Shown here one piece after another: positions 15,733 to 32,563 of a DNA stretch of 64,000 nt. Both the position numbers and the translations under genes were made by a program. The number at the start of each line of letters is the position of its first letter. Within the stretch, counting starts at the first letter, position 1. This DNA is from Leucothrix pacifica. GTDB lineage: Bacteria; Pseudomonadota; Gammaproteobacteria; Thiotrichales; Thiotrichaceae. Below the pieces are notes generated by a model that saw only the letters and a list, made by a program, of their open reading frames with translations, searched no databases and was not told the origin of the DNA. The stretch covers positions 1-64,000 of the forward strand of contig NZ_QGKM01000037.1 of assembly GCF_003172875.1 (NCBI RefSeq), written 5' to 3'.

Positions 15733-18700
15733 ATGAAAATAAGAAATCGACACCTCCGGGCACTACGCTATATCGCGCCAGTATTTTGCTCGATCGCTGT
15801 TCTCTCCACTCAAGTACAAGCAGGTCCTACCATCCAACTTAATGGCGATGAGTCTCGAGACGGCATGGCTGACTCTGGTAACTTAGGTTACGTTGGAGGT
15901 AATACCCGCATTGGTGTGAGCATAGACCGCGAACTGCAAGGTCAGGTAGATATTAATCAGATCATTCATGAAGATGATAGCAGTGCAACCAGTGCCGAGG
16001 GTTGGTTTGGTTACAAAATCAAAGACGATGATAATGCGACTAAAGGTTTCCAGGGTGGTGGTGTCAAGGTTAACCACCAATGGGTGAATGACGAGTTAGA
16101 CACTGTACATAAAGTATTTGGAGCCTACGACCGCAATACGGATGACCAGGCTAAAGCAACCTTAGGTTATGGTCAGGAAACAGAAGACTTGTTTTGGTCA
16201 GGTCATGTCAGTAAAGGCATGGGCGACGAAATTGTCAATGGTGATGTAACTACGCGTGGCTACGACTATGGCGTCGGTGGTGAAGTGGGTACGTTCTTCG
16301 ATAGTACACTGACGCGTGTTCGTGGTGGTTTGGACTATGAATTTGGTACTGAGTATGCTGATGATGAAGACCGTCCGGGACAACTGACGGTGTCAGCGGG
16401 TATCGAGCAGTTCTTCCATGACACTCCACACAGTATCAGTCTGGATGTATCCGGTAACCGCAGACAAGGCGGTAATGATGCTGAAGACACTGACTTTAAC
16501 GCACGTTTAGGCTATCGCTATGAGTTCGGTGGCAATGGTGCATTCCAATCTGAGCAAACAACCCGCCGTCGCCGTGTAGAAATTCCGGGAACACCGGGCC
16601 GACCTGGCCGCGCTGCAGTTCCGGCAATACCACCCACACCTGCCATTGCTGCAACACCAGCTCGTCCTGGTCGCGCAGCGATTCCTCCGAAGTATGAGCG
16701 TCGTGCAGTACAAACACCGGGACATGAGTTTGTTAAGACAACGATGAAGCTGGAGAACGAGACCTTCTTTAAGCTGAACTCATCCGCGTTGACAGAATCT
16801 GCGAAGCGCAATCTGGATAAGATCATTTCTCAAGTGCGTGGCCATGGTTACCTTGGTGCAATTCGCATTACGGGTAACACCTGTGGCATGGGTGATCCGG
16901 TCTACGATCAGCGTTTATCCGAGAACCGTGCAAATGCTGTGCGTGATTACCTGATTGACCAAGGTTTCAACCCTGATCATTTGATTGCACGTGGTTTGGG
17001 TAAAGGCAGTCCGAAATATGATCGTTCTGATAATGACTTCAAGAACCGTCGCGTTGACTTAGAGTATGTTACAGAGCGCTCGATTCGCAAGAAGACGACC
17101 AAAACACAGTATAAAAATGTATTGGTTCAGGAAGGTCGTCCGGCAATCCCTGCACAACCTGCCCGACCTGGTCGTGCCGGACACCCTGGCCGCCCTGCTA
17201 TTCCGGCAATTCCTGCGACTCCGGGTACACCATCACGCTTTGTTTGGAAAACAGAAGTGGTTAAATCTGCTCCGATCTGGATCAAGCGTGCCCTTCGCAA
17301 TACGATTAAGCACAACAAGACCATCAGTACTTATACCACGCGTACTGCTCAGGAAGTTAAGAACGACACATTCATCATGGACAGCCGTGATGGTTTGATT
17401 GATGTCTTAAGTAATGACAGCGCTGGCGTCACCTTAGTCCGTGTGTCACAACCTGCGAATGGTACGGTGGTGATTGAAGGAAATAAAGTTCGCTACGTCC
17501 CGAACCCCGGATACAGCGGACCGGACTCATTCACCTATACTGTAAGTGATCGCGATGGAAATGAAATCACCGCAACAGTGAATGTTGATGTCCCGGTCGC
17601 AATGAATAATGTTCCTGTAACGACATCAGACACTGCTTCAACCACAGAAGATACCTTAGTGTTGATCGATGTGCTGAGCAATGACAGCGACCCTGACGGA
17701 GATACTTTGGTTATCGAAAGCACCTCCACCCCTGCCAATGGTTCGGTGCGTGTGGTTGGTGGTCAGATTGAGTACACACCTAATACCGGTTTTGATGGCG
17801 AAGATACGTTTACCTATACCGTCAATGATGGAAACGGCAATATCTCAACTTCGACGGTGACAGTTAGCGTATCGAATGTTAACGAGGCACCAAAAGCCAC
17901 TGATGACATGGTCACAACGCCAGAGAACACACCAGTGACGATCGATGCTGTTGCTAACGATACTGATGGCGATGGTGATGACTTAGTTATTACCTCGCTA
18001 AGTAATCCGGCAAATGGACAGGTTGCGATTGTTAACAACCAAATCGTGTACACACCTGATGATGGCTTCTTTGGAAGTGATAGCTTCACCTACACAATTA
18101 CTGATAATCAGGGCCATGATGTCACTGCGAACGTAACAGTCAATGTGACTGACGTTAATGTAACGCCAGTTCCTGTTAATGACATGCGTACTACGCCAGA
18201 GAATACTCCGGTAACAATCGCAGTGCTTGATAATGACAGCGATCCTGATGGTGATCCGCTAACTATCACAAGTACTACTAATCCGTCTAACGGCTCAGTG
18301 AGTATCGTTGGTGATGAGATTGTTTACACACCTAATACGGGTTACTTCGGTTCTGATAGCTTCCAGTACACTATTTCTGATGGTCAAGGTCACTCTGAAA
18401 CGGCAACTGTTACTATCGAAGTAACCGATGTGAACATGACGCCGGTAGCCGCTGATGACATGCGTACTACGCCTGAGAACACTCCGGTAACAATCGCAGT
18501 GCTTGATAATGACAGCGATCCTGATGGTGACCCACTAACCATCACAGACACTACAAGCCCAGTTAATGGTTCAGTGAGCATTGTTGGGGATGAGATAGTT
18601 TATACACCTAACACTAACTACTCCGGTCCTGACAGCTTCCAGTACACCATCTCTGATGGCCAAGGTCACTCTGAGACTGCCACGGTTAACATCGAAGTAA

Positions 18701-20394
18701 CCGATGTGAACATGATGCCTGACGCTGTTAATGACAGTGAAAAGACAGATCAGGATACGCCAGTGACGATTAGCGTTCTGACCAATGATACAGACCCTGA
18801 TGGAGATACCTTAAGCATTACAGGTGCAACTGCTCCTCTGAATGGTACGGTATCAGTATCTGGCAATGACATTATCTATACGCCAAATACCGGATTTAGT
18901 GGAACCGATATCTTTGATTACAGCATCACTGACGGTCAAGGTAATAACGATACTGCATCGGTCGTAGTTACTGTTGAAAAGACCAATGAAAGCCCGCTCG
19001 CCGTTGATGATTCACGTACAACTGATGAAAATACTCCGGTCACTATTGCTGTACTGGCAAATGACAGTGACCCAGATGGAGATACACTAAGCATTACAGA
19101 TACGACCAGTCCATCAAACGGTACGGTGAGCATCGTAGGAGACAGCATAGTCTATACACCTAATTCAGGTTACTCAGGCAATGACAGCTTCGATTACACC
19201 ATTACTGATAACAACGGGAATGATGTAACAGCGACAGTGACTATTGTGATCAATGCTGTTAACCAGGCACCAAAGTTAACAAATGATGTGGACTCAACTG
19301 AGGAAGACACACCAGTAACCATTGATGTGACGGCGAACGATACAGATCCGGAAGGTGACACACTGACGGTGATGTCAGCATCTGATCCGTCTAACGGTAC
19401 TGTCAGCATTGTCGGTAACAATGCGGTCTACACCCCTGCAGCGGGTTATGTTGGCCCTGATAGCTTCACTTATACTGTGAACGATGGCAACGGAAATACG
19501 CAAACCGCAACCGTCGATGTTACCGTCACGGCTAAGGTCGTTAACCTGCCACCGATTGCAGTTGATGATACAGCCAATGTGGCCTATGAGACACCAACAA
19601 CCATCCCTGTCGCAACGAATGACACGGACCCTGAAGGTGGGACAACCTGTGTATCTGCTATTCAGACAGCTCCAACCAATGGCTGGGTTGAGATTTCATC
19701 AAGTGGAACGGATGTTATCTACACACCATTTGATGGCTTCTCAGGCACTGATAGCTTTGTATACTTAGCGTGTGATGCTGAGGGTAATACTTCACCAGCA
19801 ACCGTAACAGTCAATGTGGCTGCGAATACAAACTTACCACCAGTGATTAGCCCGAACTATGCGGCAATCCAGGGTTATGGTTCAGTACCGATCCGCGTAC
19901 TAGCTGACGATATGGATCCGGAAGGTGACACCCTGACAATTCTACGTATTGAAAATGGTCCTGCAAACGGTACAGCCACTATCAGTGGAGATCGCGTACT
20001 CTATCAAGCCGACGATGGTTTTGTCGGTGCGGACTCTTTCTACTACGTGGTTAGTGACGGTAATGGTAACGAAGGCTCTGCACGAGTTGATGTCGATGTT
20101 AAAAACGATATCATCGAAAACAGAGACCCTGTCATCAGCACTATTCCGGCATTTGATGCAGCAAACAGTGGCACCACGGCAATGGATGTTGGTAGCTTCA
20201 TTTCTGACCCTGACGGCGATAGCGTTTACGTTGCAGTAGCAGATGCGCTAAGCGGAAGAGTTGTGTTCAGCGGTACAACGCTGCAATACACGCCCGAGGA
20301 AGCTAAGTCTGGTGATACAGACACCATCTACATCACTGTATCTGATGGTAACGGCGGAATGGCCGACAGCGTTATAACCGTTAATATTCAATAA
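15733..20394 (+). CDS. Giant outer-membrane protein: barrel-like region, OmpA-like domain, 11 Ig/cadherin-like repeats
   Basis: A 1553-aa exported protein. Residues 1-30 are a signal peptide ending QVQA. Residues about 31-275 are rich in alternating beta segments ending in an aromatic (GYRYEFGG), like a small outer-membrane barrel. Residues 284-320 form a proline/arginine/alanine linker (PGRPGRAAVPAIPP). Residues 336-446 are an OmpA-C/peptidoglycan-binding-type domain (FFKLNSSALTESAKRNLD, ITGNTC, SENRANAVRDYL, NRRVDLEY). A second PGR-rich linker lies at 465-500, and about 543-1553 hold 11 repeats of roughly 92 aa with the pattern DVLxNDSDPDGDTL...NGxVxI...YTPNxGFxGxDSFxYTxSDGxG. It is a likely adhesin or envelope-spanning scaffold. 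The acidic D/N-rich loops suggest calcium binding. Confidence 0.85.
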   Translation: MKIRNRHLRALRYIAPVFCSIAVLSTQVQAGPTIQLNGDESRDGMADSGNLGYVGGNTRIGVSIDRELQGQVDINQIIHEDDSSATSAEGWFGYKIKDDDNATKGFQGGGVKVNHQWVNDELDTVHKVFGAYDRNTDDQAKATLGYGQETEDLFWSGHVSKGMGDEIVNGDVTTRGYDYGVGGEVGTFFDSTLTRVRGGLDYEFGTEYADDEDRPGQLTVSAGIEQFFHDTPHSISLDVSGNRRQGGNDAEDTDFNARLGYRYEFGGNGAFQSEQTTRRRRVEIPGTPGRPGRAAVPAIPPTPAIAATPARPGRAAIPPKYERRAVQTPGHEFVKTTMKLENETFFKLNSSALTESAKRNLDKIISQVRGHGYLGAIRITGNTCGMGDPVYDQRLSENRANAVRDYLIDQGFNPDHLIARGLGKGSPKYDRSDNDFKNRRVDLEYVTERSIRKKTTKTQYKNVLVQEGRPAIPAQPARPGRAGHPGRPAIPAIPATPGTPSRFVWKTEVVKSAPIWIKRALRNTIKHNKTISTYTTRTAQEVKNDTFIMDSRDGLIDVLSNDSAGVTLVRVSQPANGTVVIEGNKVRYVPNPGYSGPDSFTYTVSDRDGNEITATVNVDVPVAMNNVPVTTSDTASTTEDTLVLIDVLSNDSDPDGDTLVIESTSTPANGSVRVVGGQIEYTPNTGFDGEDTFTYTVNDGNGNISTSTVTVSVSNVNEAPKATDDMVTTPENTPVTIDAVANDTDGDGDDLVITSLSNPANGQVAIVNNQIVYTPDDGFFGSDSFTYTITDNQGHDVTANVTVNVTDVNVTPVPVNDMRTTPENTPVTIAVLDNDSDPDGDPLTITSTTNPSNGSVSIVGDEIVYTPNTGYFGSDSFQYTISDGQGHSETATVTIEVTDVNMTPVAADDMRTTPENTPVTIAVLDNDSDPDGDPLTITDTTSPVNGSVSIVGDEIVYTPNTNYSGPDSFQYTISDGQGHSETATVNIEVTDVNMMPDAVNDSEKTDQDTPVTISVLTNDTDPDGDTLSITGATAPLNGTVSVSGNDIIYTPNTGFSGTDIFDYSITDGQGNNDTASVVVTVEKTNESPLAVDDSRTTDENTPVTIAVLANDSDPDGDTLSITDTTSPSNGTVSIVGDSIVYTPNSGYSGNDSFDYTITDNNGNDVTATVTIVINAVNQAPKLTNDVDSTEEDTPVTIDVTANDTDPEGDTLTVMSASDPSNGTVSIVGNNAVYTPAAGYVGPDSFTYTVNDGNGNTQTATVDVTVTAKVVNLPPIAVDDTANVAYETPTTIPVATNDTDPEGGTTCVSAIQTAPTNGWVEISSSGTDVIYTPFDGFSGTDSFVYLACDAEGNTSPATVTVNVAANTNLPPVISPNYAAIQGYGSVPIRVLADDMDPEGDTLTILRIENGPANGTATISGDRVLYQADDGFVGADSFYYVVSDGNGNEGSARVDVDVKNDIIENRDPVISTIPAFDAANSGTTAMDVGSFISDPDGDSVYVAVADALSGRVVFSGTTLQYTPEEAKSGDTDTIYITVSDGNGGMADSVITVNIQ
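18181..18732 (+). repeat. Two near-identical 276-bp tandem units inside the giant OMP gene
   Basis: Ig-like repeats 4 and 5 start at 18181 and 18457 (GACATGCGTACTACGCC in both), exactly 276 bp (92 codons) apart. They are nearly identical at the DNA level over long stretches, unlike the other, more diverged units. This indicates a recent duplication or gene conversion. Confidence 0.85.
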
Positions 20395-25072: not shown

Positions 25073-25933
25073 TTATTTCCCGCCCATCATACCTTTGATA
25101 GCGGCGGGGATATCAGCCGGGAATACCACGGTTTTTGAATTATCAGACTGGGCGATTTCTTCCAGTGATGCGACGTACTTCTCACCCAGCAAATACACCA
25201 CAGGCAGCTCATTCTCGCCAATCGCTTCCGTCACCATTTGAATGGAACGCTTACTCGCCTCAGCCAAAATTACTTGCGCCTGTGCATCACGACGGGACGC
25301 TTCTAAACGACCATCCGCTTCCAGAATCTGCGCCTCTTTTTCACCATCAGCACGTGTGACCGTTGCACGACGAGCCCGTTCTGCTGCTGCCTGTTCTTCC
25401 ATAGCATGCTGCATGGTTCCAGATGGATTGATGTCCTGAATTTCGACGGTTTTAAGCACAATCCCCCAGTCTGCAATATCGTCTGAAATCATGCCTTTGA
25501 GCTTTGACTTAATGAGATCACGTGACGACAAAGCTGAGTCCAAGTCCATTTCACCAATAATGGAGCGCAGAGACGTTTGTACCAGCGTTTGGATCGCTAC
25601 CACATAATTTTCAACACCGTAGACTGCTTTTTCAGGCGCAACGATATTAATATACGCCACTGCATTGGCCACAATCACAGCATTATCGCGGGTGATAACC
25701 TCCTGTGAAGGAATGTCCAATACGATGTCTTTGGTCGTCACCTTGTAAGCCACGGTGTCAATAAACGGAATCAAAATATTCAGACCCGGCTGTAAAGTCT
25801 TGTGATATTTCCCTAAACGTTGCACTACCCATTTGTAACCTTGCGGAACAAGACGCACACCTTTGGCAATGGTCATTGCTACAATAAAGAGCACTGCCAC
25901 CGCCAGAATTAACCCAGAATCAATCATTTCCAT
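25073..25933 (-). CDS. qmcA: SPFH/stomatin-family membrane protein (QmcA-like)
   Basis: A 286-aa SPFH (band 7) protein: one N-terminal membrane helix (ILAVAVLFIVAMTIA), the entry to the SPFH fold (VPQGYKWVVQRLGKYHKTLQ), the conserved QTSLRSIIGEMDLDSALSSR segment and a C-terminal AE-rich coiled coil (EEQAAAERARRATVTRADGE). Such proteins form large membrane microdomain assemblies and in E. coli QmcA is linked to FtsH. Here it is the last gene of an operon with an NfeD protein and a proteasome-like Ntn hydrolase, which suggests a role in membrane proteostasis. Confidence 0.93.
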   Translation of the reverse strand: MEMIDSGLILAVAVLFIVAMTIAKGVRLVPQGYKWVVQRLGKYHKTLQPGLNILIPFIDTVAYKVTTKDIVLDIPSQEVITRDNAVIVANAVAYINIVAPEKAVYGVENYVVAIQTLVQTSLRSIIGEMDLDSALSSRDLIKSKLKGMISDDIADWGIVLKTVEIQDINPSGTMQHAMEEQAAAERARRATVTRADGEKEAQILEADGRLEASRRDAQAQVILAEASKRSIQMVTEAIGENELPVVYLLGEKYVASLEEIAQSDNSKTVVFPADIPAAIKGMMGGK

Positions 25934-25938
25934 ACTCC

Positions 25939-26391
25939 TTAAACCTTAATTACAATCAGACTATTCCCGGATATATCACTGACTCTGACCCGGTCACCGG
26001 CCTCAACCTCATCATCACATAAGAACGTCCACTCATCCGCACCTAAAATCGGCACTGAGAAACGCAATACACCGCGTCGGTCAGTGGTTGGCGGTGTCAA
26101 TACCTGTCCTGTCTCACCGACGATCGCTTCACGCGACAAACCTGCTTTAGTACGATCCTTGGATAATGGCTGCATGAATTTAAACCACAGCCATGTCAGC
26201 AATATTGATATAGCTACCCAACATAACACCTGAATCGACAGGCTCATGGAAGGAATAATCAATACAACCACTCCCACTAACACCGCTGCTGCACCAAACC
26301 AAAGCGCCACAAATGAAGGGAGAATAATCTCAAGCGCCATTAAACCAATACCCAGAACGATCCAATGCCAGTACAGCACCACAAAATCCAT
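25939..26391 (-). CDS. NfeD-family membrane protein
   Basis: A 150-aa protein with three or four hydrophobic segments (YWHWIVLGIGLMALEIILPS, VALWFGAAAVLVGVVVLIIP, IQVLCWVAISILLTWLW) and a C-terminal OB-like beta domain (IVGETGQVLTPP, DEWTFLCDDEVEAGDRVRV). This is the short NfeD type that pairs with stomatins. It ends 5 nt before the QmcA-like start, in line with the established NfeD-stomatin pairing. Confidence 0.92.
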   Translation of the reverse strand: MDFVVLYWHWIVLGIGLMALEIILPSFVALWFGAAAVLVGVVVLIIPSMSLSIQVLCWVAISILLTWLWFKFMQPLSKDRTKAGLSREAIVGETGQVLTPPTTDRRGVLRFSVPILGADEWTFLCDDEVEAGDRVRVSDISGNSLIVIKV

Positions 26392-26393
26392 GA

Positions 26394-26582
26394 TTAATCC
26401 TCGTCTTTGGGTTTACGCATTAATTCATTAATCAACTTTTCTGCCAAGCTTTCAGCCTCATCGACTTCTCCCTTTTGAGGGGCATCCTCGTCAATCTCAA
26501 CCGGCATATTCGGGAATAACTCTACCTTTAGCTGCTCCATAGAGTGGAATACTCTGTTGGTTTCATTTGCACGATTAGTCAT
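26394..26582 (-). CDS. Tiny acidic protein between the Ntn hydrolase and NfeD
   Basis: A 62-aa acidic, hydrophilic protein (starts MTNRANETNRVFHSMEQLKV; many E/D; helix-forming C-terminus ending MRKPKDED). The frame extends to 26621, but the ATG at 26582 overlaps the stop of the upstream Ntn hydrolase by 8 nt and has AGAGG about 8 nt upstream, so I use it. I know no family. Its tight coupling on both sides suggests a small partner or inhibitor of the hydrolase or an adaptor to NfeD. That is inference. Confidence 0.75.
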   Translation of the reverse strand: MTNRANETNRVFHSMEQLKVELFPNMPVEIDEDAPQKGEVDEAESLAEKLINELMRKPKDED

Positions 26583-27870
26583 TATCAATACCTCTGAAAT
26601 AATTTTTGTAGAACGTCGCATTCAGCTCTGGCGGGAAATAGTGCTTACGTTTAATCCAGACCAGACCATCACCTTTGGAAATAACTGCCACATCAATTGG
26701 ACCACCGACTGTTTCCAGCGTATTGGTCATTTTACGCTTAAAGGCAGTCAGATTAACCAGAGCCTCAGCCATGGCCGCCAACTCATCCTTCGGTAACACA
26801 CGCACCATATTCATGACTGGTGTGATATGAACATCACGAATGTGCTGACCAAAACCTTGATAATAAGAGTTCAAAGCTGCCTCCAGACTTAAGCCCAAGG
26901 AATCTTTTATCTCAGCAACCGAACGCACCTCCGTATTCAGATCTTCATCTTTAATTAAGTCTGGCACGCGCTCAATAAACCCGGTTAGCGCGGTCGTCAT
27001 ATGATGCAGTATTTGTGAATTCACACCATTTAAGAACAAATTAACCATGTCCTCCTGAGCAAAGGGATAAACCGCCGCATCACGCGAGTGAGTAATCTTT
27101 TTACTTTTACTCTCATCAAGTCGGTATTTCAAACGCCCCTGTAGAATTCCCTCAATCTCATAGTTAGCCACTGACGGGTAAATTTCTTTGTTACCGTAAC
27201 CAGCAAACACCAAGCCTGATGTTGCACGTGAATACACATTACGGGTATGAATATAGATCGCAATATCGTACAGCTTGGTGACATAAGCCTTACGCGGTTT
27301 TAAGTTCTGAAAAACACCTTCCAGCAACTCTTTAAACAACTCACTGTAATGACTGCGTGCCTTATCCTCAAACTCCTCATCCATCCCCAGTCCATAAGGC
27401 TCAGCACCTAAAGTCTCATGCTGCTTATCAATCAGCTCTTCCAACATCTTTGCAACCTGCTCTTCGCTGACAGGTGTTCCGGATTGCATCAGTGGCTCAA
27501 CAGCTTTAATCAGTTGCTCACGTAAGCGGTTGTAGAGCCGGTAAACATTCCCGCCAACCCACTGACGTTCCAGTTCTGGCGGAAACAAATCCATGCGTCC
27601 TTTCAGATAGGATAGAAAATCTTCCGCGTAGTCTTCCAACGTATCCATCTGCTTATCTTTAAGCGCAACACGATAAATCTTGATCAAGGTCTCCCAGGGG
27701 ACCCCCATCAAACCAGCATTACCATAGACCATAATGCCAACTGGCTCTGTTTTTGACAGTGCCATCAGTTTAATCGCGGTGTTATAAATTTTGGTCCCAC
27801 CAATGGTCACTGCACTGTCAGCAGCAAGTGCAACACCTGAAGAATTAAGTATGATCACCTCAGCAGTCAT
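26575..27870 (-). CDS. Proteasome-beta/HslV-like N-terminal nucleophile hydrolase, long form
   Basis: A 431-aa soluble protein whose N-terminus aligns without gaps to proteasome beta subunits and HslV. After removal of Met, Thr is residue 1, followed by GVALAAD with Asp at 17, Thr at 21 (DSAVTIGG) and Lys at 33 (NTAIKLM), exactly the T1/D17/K33 catalytic spacing. A GIMVYGNAG strand-loop follows, as in HslV (AGFAGG). Thr at position 2 favours simple methionine removal, so no propeptide would be needed. The protein is about twice the length of a beta subunit. Its middle section (about 70-330) is helical and charged and may be an insertion or oligomerisation part. The C-terminus (VGGPIDVAVISKGDGLVWIK) could complete the Ntn sandwich. 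It is the first gene of the operon with NfeD and SPFH. The fold and activity are inferred from motif spacing only. Confidence 0.7.
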   Translation of the reverse strand: MTAEVIILNSSGVALAADSAVTIGGTKIYNTAIKLMALSKTEPVGIMVYGNAGLMGVPWETLIKIYRVALKDKQMDTLEDYAEDFLSYLKGRMDLFPPELERQWVGGNVYRLYNRLREQLIKAVEPLMQSGTPVSEEQVAKMLEELIDKQHETLGAEPYGLGMDEEFEDKARSHYSELFKELLEGVFQNLKPRKAYVTKLYDIAIYIHTRNVYSRATSGLVFAGYGNKEIYPSVANYEIEGILQGRLKYRLDESKSKKITHSRDAAVYPFAQEDMVNLFLNGVNSQILHHMTTALTGFIERVPDLIKDEDLNTEVRSVAEIKDSLGLSLEAALNSYYQGFGQHIRDVHITPVMNMVRVLPKDELAAMAEALVNLTAFKRKMTNTLETVGGPIDVAVISKGDGLVWIKRKHYFPPELNATFYKNYFRGIDND

Positions 27871-28190: not shown

Positions 28191-28785
28191 ATGACTCAAA
28201 ATCAGGAAGATTTGTGCCTCTTAATTGATAAAATTCAACAAGAGAATCAACAAGCCTTGGGTGAGCTTTATGATGCGACGGCTAACCGGATATATGGTTT
28301 CGTACTGAAGTTAACTAATAACAAACCGCTAACCGAAGAAATCGTTGGCGACTTGTATTATGCAGGTCTGGCGCAACGCGTCGAAGTTTGACGCTGAACG
28401 TGCAACACCAATAGCCTGGTTGTTAATGATGGCACGAAGCCGGGCATTTGATGCACTAAGACGTGAACAATCACGAACCAGACTTCAGGACGCCATACCG
28501 GACAATTTCGATGCTGTTGATGTCACTAACCCTGACCCTTGCACCCAAACTTTGGAAGCAGAAGAAGGTTCAGTGCTGCAAGAAGCGCTTCAGTTGCTGA
28601 ATGAACAACAACGACAAATGATTGCGTTAGCGTTTTACCGAGACATGACCCACAATGAAATAGCAAACTATATCAACCAACCACTGGGTACTGTAAAAAC
28701 CACCTTACGCCGTTCGCAGGCTATTTTGCGGGCAGCGATGACCAAACCTGATTTGGTCAAGAGAGATTGCTATGAACAAGCATAA
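28191..28785 (+). pseudogene. ECF sigma factor (ChrR-associated type), split by a +1 frameshift
   Basis: The first 56 codons encode sigma region 2 up to EEIVGDLY. The rest (MQVWRNASKFDAERATPIAW onward) continues in another frame through region 2.4 (SRAFDALRREQSRTR) and the region 4 helix-turn-helix (LGTVKTTLRRSQAILR). One extra T in the TATTATG at 28356-28362 is enough to explain the break: deleting it joins GDLY to MQVWRN as in intact family members. Both halves are otherwise well preserved, and the downstream anti-sigma gene overlaps by 14 nt. It is either a recent mutation, a sequencing error, or (less likely) a recoding site. Confidence 0.85.
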
Positions 28786-29245
28786 TTACGCTCTGAACAA
28801 CGAGCTTGATGAAGACATCATGCAAGCCTTGGCAGACAATGAATCTGCCGTACCAATGCCTATCGACCTGAAAGCCAAGTTACGCGGTAATATTATGGAT
28901 AGGGTTGCTCAGGAACACTCAGGCGAAGGCCCGGGCTATATCACAGTACGTGCCAGTGATGATGGCTGGGTTGAAGCGTTACCCGGTGGATTTATCAAGA
29001 TTCTGAAAGAAGCAGATGAGAATGGCTCATTGACCTACCTGGCACGCTTAGAGCCAGGCTTTGAAATGCCGAGTCATGTTCACGAGTTTGGTGAAGAATG
29101 CATCATGCTAGAAGGTGAGTTATGGATGGGTGATCTACACCTTAAGAAAGGTGATTATCACTACGCAGCAGCAGGCATGAAACATGGTAAACACCGGTCT
29201 CCTACTGGTGCCCTGATATATTTGAATGGGCCACTACCAATCTGA
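28772..29245 (+). CDS. ChrR-like cupin anti-sigma factor
   Basis: A 157-aa protein with an N-terminal helical anti-sigma part (residues about 1-60, LKAKLRGNIMDRVAQEH) and a C-terminal cupin with the metal-binding pattern SHVHEFGEECIMLEGE and a later His in GMKHGKHRSP. This is the ChrR arrangement, in which a cupin/zinc anti-sigma controls a group of ECF sigmas responding to singlet oxygen or organic peroxides. It overlaps the frameshifted sigma gene by 14 nt, implying coupled expression. If the sigma is truly broken, this gene has lost its partner. Confidence 0.85.
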   Translation: MNKHNYALNNELDEDIMQALADNESAVPMPIDLKAKLRGNIMDRVAQEHSGEGPGYITVRASDDGWVEALPGGFIKILKEADENGSLTYLARLEPGFEMPSHVHEFGEECIMLEGELWMGDLHLKKGDYHYAAAGMKHGKHRSPTGALIYLNGPLPI

Positions 29246-31246: not shown

Positions 31247-32563
31247 GTGAAACACACACTAAAAACGCTTACTACAGCAATGACGATTGTCATGCTGGTC
31301 ACGTTGATCACAGGCTGTTTCAGCAAGAAAACAGACAATGATGTTAGTCAATCTCAGGCAATTGAGGAAAACGACACAGAAGCAGCACCTCCTCCACCCG
31401 CAGCGGTCATTGAGCCAGCACCAACTATGTCCGCACCAGTGGTTACATCCGCGCCGGCTGGCTCGATTGATTCGGGTATGGCAGAACCGATCATTGAAGA
31501 ACCGGTTATTGTAGAACCAATGATGGTTGAGCCAAGCGCTGGCGGTGCTGCGGCCCAGAGGCCCAGTAAAACGATTGGTAATATTCTGTATAACCCGCCT
31601 ACAGAAATGACCATGAATGTTACTGAAACAGTGGAAGTGCGTATTGCTAAAAATGAAATCAGTGAAGACAATCTTACAGGCTCCGGCGCCATACAAAAAG
31701 ATGAAATTCCCATTAGCCAAACCATGAAAGTTCAACTGTGCTGTGGTGATTCACAAAAGGGAGACCCCTTTGATATTCACAGCGTCAGTGCCCCGGAGCA
31801 ATTAGTCGATGACCCACTGCTGGATGATGATGAATATACCGAGTGGGTGTTTCAGGTAACCCCGCGCCAATCCGGAGAGCAACAGCTACAGTTGTTAGTC
31901 ACAGCTCTCTATAACTATCCTGACGGCAGTATTCGCCAAAAAGACCGCGTACTCAATAAAGCAATCAAAGTACAGGTCGATACCACTAAAGAGGCACAAA
32001 ACTGGATTTCACAACATTGGCATTGGCTGGGTCTGTTATTAGCCATACCACTGGCAGCGATACTGGTTCGTCGACGCAACAAGCCAGACAAACACTACGC
32101 CGCAGCATCGGGCAATGAATCTATATTCATCAGCTATCGTCGTGATGACAGCAGCGGCTATACCCTCGCCATCTACGAAAAGCTCAAATCCGCACTAGGC
32201 GATGAATCTGTATTTATGGATATGGATGATATTCCTCACGGTGAGGATTTTGCCAAGCACATCGAGAAAGTGCTAAACAAAGCCGATACCGTGTTAGTAA
32301 TGATTGGTAATAGTTGGCTTAACGCCAGTAATTCACAAGGAAGACGTCTGGACAATGCAGAAGACTTTGTGCGAATGGAAGTAGCGACTGCGCTGACAAA
32401 AGATTTGCGGGTTATTCCGGTATTACTGAGAGGCGCTGAGATGCCTGAGCCTGACGAACTGCCGGATACCCTGAAGGCGCTGAGTACTCGTAATGCCATC
32501 CGCATTCATGATGATCAATTCGATGAGAGCATTCAGCGGCTCATTCAATCAATTACGCGCTGA
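31247..32563 (+). CDS. Lipoprotein-anchored transmembrane protein with cytoplasmic TIR domain
   Basis: A 438-aa protein using a GTG start (GGGA 9 nt upstream). Order of parts: lipoprotein signal with lipobox LITGC (Cys 24), a proline/valine-rich tether (about 45-105), an extracytoplasmic beta-rich domain (NPPTEMTMNVTETVEVRI ... EWVFQVTPRQSGEQQLQLLV), one transmembrane helix (HWLGLLLAIPLAAILV), then a C-terminal TIR_2-like domain (IFISYRRDDSSGYTLAIYEK, VFMDMDDIPHGEDFAKHIEK, DTVLVMIGNSWL, VRMEVATAL). The layout suggests an outside-sensing module coupled to a cytoplasmic TIR. Whether it cleaves NAD or signals by contact is not visible from the sequence. Confidence 0.85.
   Translation: MKHTLKTLTTAMTIVMLVTLITGCFSKKTDNDVSQSQAIEENDTEAAPPPPAAVIEPAPTMSAPVVTSAPAGSIDSGMAEPIIEEPVIVEPMMVEPSAGGAAAQRPSKTIGNILYNPPTEMTMNVTETVEVRIAKNEISEDNLTGSGAIQKDEIPISQTMKVQLCCGDSQKGDPFDIHSVSAPEQLVDDPLLDDDEYTEWVFQVTPRQSGEQQLQLLVTALYNYPDGSIRQKDRVLNKAIKVQVDTTKEAQNWISQHWHWLGLLLAIPLAAILVRRRNKPDKHYAAASGNESIFISYRRDDSSGYTLAIYEKLKSALGDESVFMDMDDIPHGEDFAKHIEKVLNKADTVLVMIGNSWLNASNSQGRRLDNAEDFVRMEVATALTKDLRVIPVLLRGAEMPEPDELPDTLKALSTRNAIRIHDDQFDESIQRLIQSITR

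What the first reader, a model, noticed from the sequence alone, without database searches (positions are those of the whole stretch)
26575..27870. Long proteasome-beta-like Ntn hydrolase with the exact T1/D17/K33 spacing
Seen: after the initiator Met, the sequence places Thr at 1, GV at 11-12, LAAD with Asp at 17, Thr at 21, Lys at 33 and Leu at 34. This lines up without a gap to proteasome beta subunits and HslV, and is followed by a GIMVYGNAG loop. Known: T1, D/E17 and K33 are the catalytic core of proteasome-type Ntn peptidases. Inference: this is an Ntn peptidase or amidase with about 200 extra residues, distinct from HslV and from the short Anbu and BPH types. I do not recognise it as a described family.
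Basis: partly seen in the sequence, partly recalled or inferred. Interest (0 to 1): 0.8.

Follow-up and report, generated by a model that had tools for sequence, protein, structure and literature searches.

The report
Proteasome-like enzyme with unnoticed small partner
The gene encodes a proteasome-fold enzyme of a known but unstudied family that is often carried by phages and other mobile DNA, and it comes with a tiny overlapping partner gene that probably controls it.

Summary
The frame is real, on the minus strand (26575-27870). Its model is a proteasome beta fold (pLDDT 91.4; Z 18.9 to yeast beta5). In 105 distinct homologues position 1 is Thr or Ser, Asp17 and the Lys are invariant; the Lys sits exactly at 33 in only 19. 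The family is probably PMI-4 of Fuchs et al. 2021, described but uncharacterised; I had no PMI-4 sequence to prove it.

New here is a second gene: a 62-residue ORF (26394-26582, minus) overlapping the enzyme's end by 8 bases. An ATG ORF of this kind follows the enzyme at 102 of 110 loci, against 116 of 605 control genes. Its largest subfamily (47 of 119 loci) lies only there, is under purifying selection and co-varies with the enzyme (r 0.80). Fuchs et al. reported no informative gene context.

The pair is patchy: archaea, bacteria, prophages (some at the very end), streptococcal satellites, plasmids. I read it as a mobile two-protein threonine-hydrolase module in which the partner controls the enzyme, probably for defence, competition or maintenance. 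Binding, activity and role are inferred; a fused model did not show how the partner docks.

The parts
26575..27870 (-). Proteasome-like Ntn hydrolase, 431 aa (P0001), probably PMI-4 of Fuchs 2021
   Evidence: ORF; PHROG 5990 E 3.4e-129; AlphaFold2 pLDDT 91.4, pTM 0.88; beta-subunit fold, VIA-align Z 18.9 over 184 residues
26394..26582 (-). Small partner ORF, 62 aa (P0002); its ATG lies 8 bases inside the end of the enzyme gene
   Evidence: found by the partner profile built from other loci with E 1.9e-9 after iteration and as the only match in the whole genome, E 2.5e-11 (the profile includes this sequence)
26591..26595 (-). AGAGG, ribosome-binding-site-like, 8 bases before the partner's ATG and inside the enzyme's coding sequence
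   Evidence: read directly; function inferred
27865..27867 (-). Codon of Thr1, presumed nucleophile once Met is removed
   Evidence: T 102 and S 3 of 105 homologues
27817..27819 (-). Codon of Asp17
   Evidence: 105 of 105
27769..27771 (-). Codon of Lys33
   Evidence: 105 of 105
26635..26658 (-). WIKRKHYF, the most conserved stretch of the enzyme, just before a C-terminal tail modelled with low confidence
   Evidence: conservation inflated, since this peptide was one of six fetch patterns; low pLDDT of 409-412 and 429-431

Best explanation
A mobile, two-gene accessory module. Gene 1 makes a proteasome-fold N-terminal-threonine hydrolase that starts Met-Thr, so that removal of Met exposes the nucleophile with no propeptide to hold it back. 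Gene 2, translated from the overlapping end of the same message, makes a protein of about 60 residues that binds the enzyme and controls it (inhibits it, gates its assembly, or brings substrates). Because the pair travels on prophages, phage satellites and plasmids and comes and goes between related genomes, its use is most likely defence, competition with other elements, or maintenance. Shown here: fold, catalytic residues, the partner ORF and its link to the enzyme, mobility. Inferred: binding, direction of control, hydrolase activity, biological role.
For: Fold and catalytic residues. Partner: an ATG ORF of 35-95 aa starts -35..+60 bases from the enzyme's stop at 102 of 110 loci vs 116 of 605 control genes of the same loci; a narrower rule tried first gave 73 of 111 vs 98 of 613. 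Largest partner subfamily: 47 of 119 loci, each hit directly after the enzyme, none elsewhere in 39,817 six-frame fragments. In 43 whole genomes chosen because they hold the pair, 41 have exactly one partner match. pN<pS in 30 of 30 compared pairs, not independent. Enzyme-partner distance correlation 0.80 over 43 pairs, 0 of 5000 permutations reached it. The partner frame is +1 to the enzyme in 40 of 47, usually with overlapping starts: translational coupling (inference). Mobility: 58 viral-contig loci, 13 phage and satellite records, 10 plasmids; 10 of 25 viral contigs of 20 kb or more have the gene within 3 kb of a contig end; in satellite Javan103 it lies between terS and the 3' end, a slot for accessory genes (passage of PMC13376191). 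Presence/absence in the genus: G002 has the flanking NfeD-SPFH genes but no module, homology stopping at window 26401. Fuchs 2021 states that propeptides are not found in the proteasome-like homologues other than beta and HslV.
Against: No binding shown: the fused enzyme-partner model gave no confident placement (pTM 0.77, partner pLDDT about 42-75, coordinates not available to me). The partner is very divergent: the main profile finds none of the 15 annotated phage/plasmid loci, although 12 of these 15 have some short ORF there. Neighbours on chromosomes are mostly ordinary genes; PADLOC families in the 130 nearest genes (216 families) vs 130 distant ones (136) do not show a clear defence island. 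The enzyme itself matches no PADLOC model (best E 0.036). In genome G428 a partner remnant stands without the enzyme, an order of loss not expected if the partner were only a helper, though compatible with an antidote. The Gly47 equivalent is not invariant.
Confidence: 0.5

Rival explanations
1. Classical toxin-antitoxin pair: the enzyme is a toxic hydrolase and the small protein its antidote, keeping mobile elements in the cell.
For: Two overlapping genes, a small charged partner, spread on plasmids, prophages and satellites; an orphan partner remnant after enzyme loss in G428.
Against: Toxicity untested; gene order is enzyme first; many copies are single chromosomal genes among housekeeping neighbours.
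Confidence: 0.2
2. A proteostasis protease with an adaptor: the small protein delivers or activates substrates, as adaptors do for other compartmental proteases; the mobile copies are passengers.
For: Proteasome fold; wide spread over archaea and bacteria; co-variation of the pair; Fuchs 2021 proposes ATP-independent clearance roles for such homologues.
Against: Rare: 4 of 369 genomes of the class, two or more of them in pieces; placed as accessory cargo in phages and satellites.
Confidence: 0.2
3. The partner is the substrate: the enzyme trims or ligates it, as connectase (an archaeal proteasome homologue) joins proteins.
For: Dedicated small neighbour; shared YF/P-rich motifs in the enzyme tail and the partner, seen by eye.
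Against: Profile comparison of enzyme and partner is not significant (E 0.062); partner motif not conserved across subfamilies.
Confidence: 0.08
4. Plain member of the PMI-4 family with a chance small ORF behind it.
For: Short ORFs arise by chance behind 116 of 605 control genes.
Against: 102 of 110 loci, purifying selection in 30 of 30 pairs, profile matches at that one place only.
Confidence: 0.02

Closest known systems
PMI-4 (Proteasome homolog with Multiple Insertions 4), Fuchs, Alva and Lupas 2021, PMC8665760
   Same: Proteasome-like fold with T1/D17/K33, long helical insertions, wide and patchy spread over bacteria, Euryarchaeota and phages as in their Table 1.
   Different: They report no genomic context suggestive of function; here a coupled small partner gene is found. 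Membership by sequence could not be tested.
HslV (with HslU)
   Same: Beta-subunit fold, Thr nucleophile directly after Met.
   Different: 431 aa against 177 aa for HslV of the same genome (L165), which sits next to HslU; no unfoldase beside P0001.
Anbu
   Same: Foldseek E 5.7e-5 to Anbu 5nyw; no propeptide.
   Different: The genome has a separate shorter Pfam-Proteasome protein that I read as Anbu (L166; the name is recalled). P0001 has large insertions.
20S proteasome beta subunit
   Same: VIA-align Z 18.9, rmsd 3.0, 184 residues.
   Different: About 247 extra residues; no alpha subunit; 11% identity.
PHROG 5990
   Same: Same family (E 3.4e-129).
   Different: A phage protein family annotated 'unknown function'; gives no role.

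Membership tests
Proteasome-type Ntn hydrolases | Beta-subunit fold | tested here: met
Proteasome-type Ntn hydrolases | Thr/Ser/Cys nucleophile as first residue after processing | tested here: met
   T 102, S 3 of 105; removal of Met is inferred
Proteasome-type Ntn hydrolases | Asp17 and Lys33 | tested here: met
   105 and 105 of 105; Lys spacing varies 33-41
Proteasome-type Ntn hydrolases | Oxyanion-hole Gly47 | tested here: inconclusive
   hand alignment: G 78, N 20 of 105; no residue-level structural alignment available
Proteasome-type Ntn hydrolases | Peptidase activity | not testable with these tools
   needs biochemistry
PMI-4 (Fuchs 2021) | Long insertions after H1/H2 and between H3/H4 | tested here: inconclusive
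   predicted helices at 98-209 and 285-358 lie at fitting places, but no residue-level superposition was available
PMI-4 (Fuchs 2021) | Spread over many bacterial phyla, Euryarchaeota and phages | tested here: met
   searches compared with their Table 1
PMI-4 (Fuchs 2021) | Sequence clusters with the PMI-4 representative HDY66466.1 | not tested
   that sequence is not held here
HslV | Compact subunit, partner of HslU | tested here: not met
   431 aa, no HslU beside it; genuine HslV-HslU elsewhere in the genome
Pfam Proteasome (PF00227) | Reaches the curated cut-off | tested here: not met
   not among the Pfam matches of P0001 up to E 1; a genome-wide PF00227 search finds two other places only
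Type II toxin-antitoxin system | Coupled pair with a small partner | tested here: met
Type II toxin-antitoxin system | Toxicity neutralised by the partner | not testable with these tools
   needs an expression test
Known anti-phage defence system (PADLOC 2023) | Match to a PADLOC model | tested here: not met
   only E 0.036

The most novel reading that the evidence does not exclude
A new class of mobile immune or addiction module: a self-standing proteasome-like threonine hydrolase held in check by a co-translated, fast-diverging small protein, shared by archaea, bacteria, prophages and phage satellites. In rhizobial plasmids it has been joined to a bacterial ubiquitin-like conjugation operon, a bacterial counterpart of the ubiquitin-proteasome pairing.
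Probability: 0.35. Interest if true: 0.85.

Novelty: new variant of a known kind. Interest (0 to 1): 0.6.

Why it matters
The prokaryotic proteasome-like families named in 2021 have almost no clues to function. A dedicated, co-evolving small partner gives a direct handle: co-purification, inhibition or activation tests and a phage or plasmid-stability assay become obvious experiments. If the pair is a defence or addiction module, it would add a proteasome-fold effector to the weapons that phages, satellites and plasmids carry.

Tried and rejected
Family libraries: no Pfam, NCBIfam, PADLOC or PDB-sequence match of weight for P0001; best weak hits E 0.036-0.69 ignored. Profile comparison of the family with HslV plus the Anbu-like protein of the genome was not significant (25 columns, E 0.076, only two template sequences), so relatedness rests on fold and catalytic residues. 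Partner proteins: no consistent Pfam family in 46 members; single hits at best E 0.0056 judged chance. Enzyme against partner profile: E 0.062, not significant. Fused model of enzyme and partner from L089: inconclusive. An alignment mixing separate partner rows (A3) was discarded because MAFFT placed 35 of the 36 partner rows wholly outside the partner region and one with a single residue in it. Defence-island test: 130 nearest genes (drawn from the first part of the loci) vs 130 distant genes; 216 vs 136 PADLOC families; not a matched control and not decisive. The ubiquitin link is not general: Multi_ubiq in 1 of 43 genomes and there on another contig than the partner match. No relative of the L002 gene by DNA in E. 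coli genomes. NfeD-SPFH neighbours are shared only within the window's genus as far as I looked, so I do not count them as part of the module. The narrow ORF rule was followed by a wider one after I saw that many partner starts overlap the enzyme; both are reported, and the wider one was chosen after seeing the data.

Literature: searches in the open PMC library brought only PMC8665760 on this family; 124 and 125 on the ubiquitin operons gave listings only. Subscription papers and preprints were not searched, and supplements were not read.

Full report
What is there. The reported coordinates hold one 431-aa frame on the minus strand, Met-Thr at its start. Pfam, NCBIfam, PADLOC and PDB sequence searches give nothing of weight; PHROG 5990, a phage family of unknown function, matches end to end with E 3.4e-129.

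Fold. AlphaFold2 on a 98-row alignment gives pLDDT 91.4 and pTM 0.88. Foldseek's first hits are yeast 20S beta (E 1.9e-5) and Anbu (E 5.7e-5). VIA-align, run on the 1000 chains that Foldseek ranked highest, gives Z 18.9, rmsd 3.0, 184 residues aligned to yeast beta5, with model residues 1-408 on chain residues 0-190. Residue 2 (Thr) matches chain residue 1 in many of the listed rows. About 247 residues are extra; from the predicted helices these are mainly 98-209 and 285-358 (placement is my inference). The conserved C-terminal tail is modelled poorly (residues 409-412 and 429-431 under pLDDT 50).

Conservation. One scan of one-genome-per-species contigs returned 226 relatives among 241 pattern matches, the best 80 kept; one scan of viral contigs returned 58. 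Of 142 loci with a readable copy, 125 are full-length and 105 distinct. T/S1 105, D17 105, Lys 105 of 105; the Lys sits at 33 in 19 and at 36 in 63. So catalysis-grade residues are kept, the exact K33 spacing is not.

What family. Fuchs et al. 2021 (PMC8665760, read in parts 1-5 of 6) describe PMI-4: insertions after H1/H2 and between H3/H4, 501 sequences at 90% identity, many bacterial phyla, Euryarchaeota, phages. P0001's family fits on both counts. I could not fetch their representative, so this stays an inference. They write that they found no genomic contexts suggestive of a specific function.

The partner gene. Directly after the enzyme, overlapping its last 8 bases, lies a 62-aa ORF, 26394-26582 minus, with AGAGG 8 bases upstream of its ATG. 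A profile started from one archaeal copy and iterated over all six frames of 119 distinct loci (39,817 fragments) finds it at 47 loci with E 0.01 or less, every hit directly downstream of the enzyme; the only weaker hit (L061, E 0.07) is there too. Other seeds find subfamilies of 10 (plus one in the frame-broken L127), 3, 3, 2 and 2 loci, again at that place; seven further seeds find only themselves. Independent of sequence, an ATG ORF of 35-95 aa starts within -35..+60 of the stop at 102 of 110 loci against 116 of 605 other genes in the same loci, one-sided Fisher P 1.5e-51 (9 of 119 loci dropped for broken copies or under 300 bases downstream). Two of the eight misses, L069 and L088, do have the partner by profile. 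Loci are not phylogenetically independent, so P values overstate.

The partner is a protein. In 30 of 30 compared pairs (50% identity or more) pN is below pS, ratios 0.09-0.49 (pairs overlap). Window against Leucothrix-type G003 copy (43% identity): pN 0.35, pS 0.76. Partner and enzyme distances correlate at 0.80 over 43 pairs, against a maximum of 0.36 in 5000 permutations; this shows joint inheritance, not contact. In 43 whole genomes picked for having the pair, 41 have one partner match and two have a second: a 26-residue weak match in G412 and, in G428, a remnant without an enzyme beside what reads as a CO dehydrogenase operon (the operon name is my reading). The consensus is roughly S-x-x-E-F-E-x-x-Y-F-P followed by a C-terminal helix-like stretch; only Met1 and one Pro are invariant in 46 rows. 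Pfam has no family for it.

Mobility. Relatives occur in 13 of 50,697 phage records, of which 9 Streptococcus (7 satellites), 2 Stenotrophomonas, 1 Providencia, 1 Porphyromonas, and in 10 of 72,556 plasmids. Of 28 viral loci that I tabulated out of 58 (near-identical and fragmentary ones mostly left out by hand), 25 contigs are 20 kb or longer and 10 of these have the gene within 3 kb of a contig end, four within 160 bases, room for little more than the partner. Neighbours of viral copies include endolysins and repressors. In satellite Javan103 the order is terS, two ORFs, enzyme, 55-aa ORF, end of record; PMC13376191 (passages) names the stretch from terS to the 3' end as a place of accessory genes. 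In 12 of 15 annotated phage or plasmid loci a short ORF follows the enzyme; the exceptions are a C-terminally extended copy, a record that ends there and a broken copy; the main partner profile matches none of them. Within the window's genus the pair is in G000 and G003, and split over contigs in G005; G002 has the flanking NfeD and SPFH genes but no pair, with homology ending at window 26401. In the class, 4 of 369 genomes match PHROG 5990, two of the three others in pieces.

Mechanism. The enzyme lacks a propeptide, and Met before Thr is normally removed (established knowledge), so it should be born with a free nucleophile; Fuchs 2021 cites that single proteasome subunits are inactive until assembled. 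A small, co-translated, co-inherited protein is then the natural controller. Whether it inhibits, assembles, feeds or is cut by the enzyme cannot be told; the fused model (L089, 52 rows, only two with the main partner type fused) left the partner as two helices with pLDDT about 42-75 and no usable placement.

Role. Defence, competition or maintenance of mobile elements is my best guess from distribution. Against it: no PADLOC match, no clear defence island, and many chromosomal copies among ordinary genes.

A side lead. In five rhizobial plasmids (two nearly identical) the enzyme lies 1.2-1.6 kb from a Multi_ubiq/E2 gene and 2.0-2.7 kb from an E1 (ThiF, with Prok-JAB in the one scanned Rhizobium copy); four of the five also have a ClpP-like protease gene there. 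E1 relatives occur in 134 of 72,556 plasmids. The other five plasmids with the enzyme show none in annotation or by eye, and it is not general in 43 genomes.

Noticed in passing
L156, L169, L172, L173, L175 (rhizobial plasmids): The enzyme gene lies beside a ubiquitin-like conjugation operon (Multi_ubiq + Prok-E2_E, E1 ThiF, and in the Rhizobium ones DUF6527 and a ClpP-like protease).
   Followed up: partly
window 25073-26391, minus: SPFH/Band 7 gene and a short NfeD gene follow the pair directly; the NfeD start is 2 bases from the partner's stop. Same order in G003 and G005.
   Followed up: partly
window 31247-32563, plus: Protein with a C-terminal TIR_2 domain (E 6.3e-15) after a long N-terminal part with a possible lipoprotein start (lipoprotein reading by eye).
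   Followed up: no
window 28345-29245, plus: Sigma-70-type factor followed by an overlapping ChrR-like cupin protein, upstream of the enzyme on the other strand.
   Followed up: no
L167 (G428:C79): Partner remnant without an enzyme beside what reads as a CO dehydrogenase operon, where three related archaea carry the full pair next to related genes.
   Followed up: partly
G000:C92 (L165) and G000:C107 (L166): The same genome has HslV with HslU and a second Pfam-Proteasome protein that reads like Anbu, so three proteasome-like enzymes coexist.
   Followed up: yes
window 15733-20394, plus: 1553-aa protein of many Ig-like repeats with an OmpA-like stretch (read by eye).
   Followed up: no
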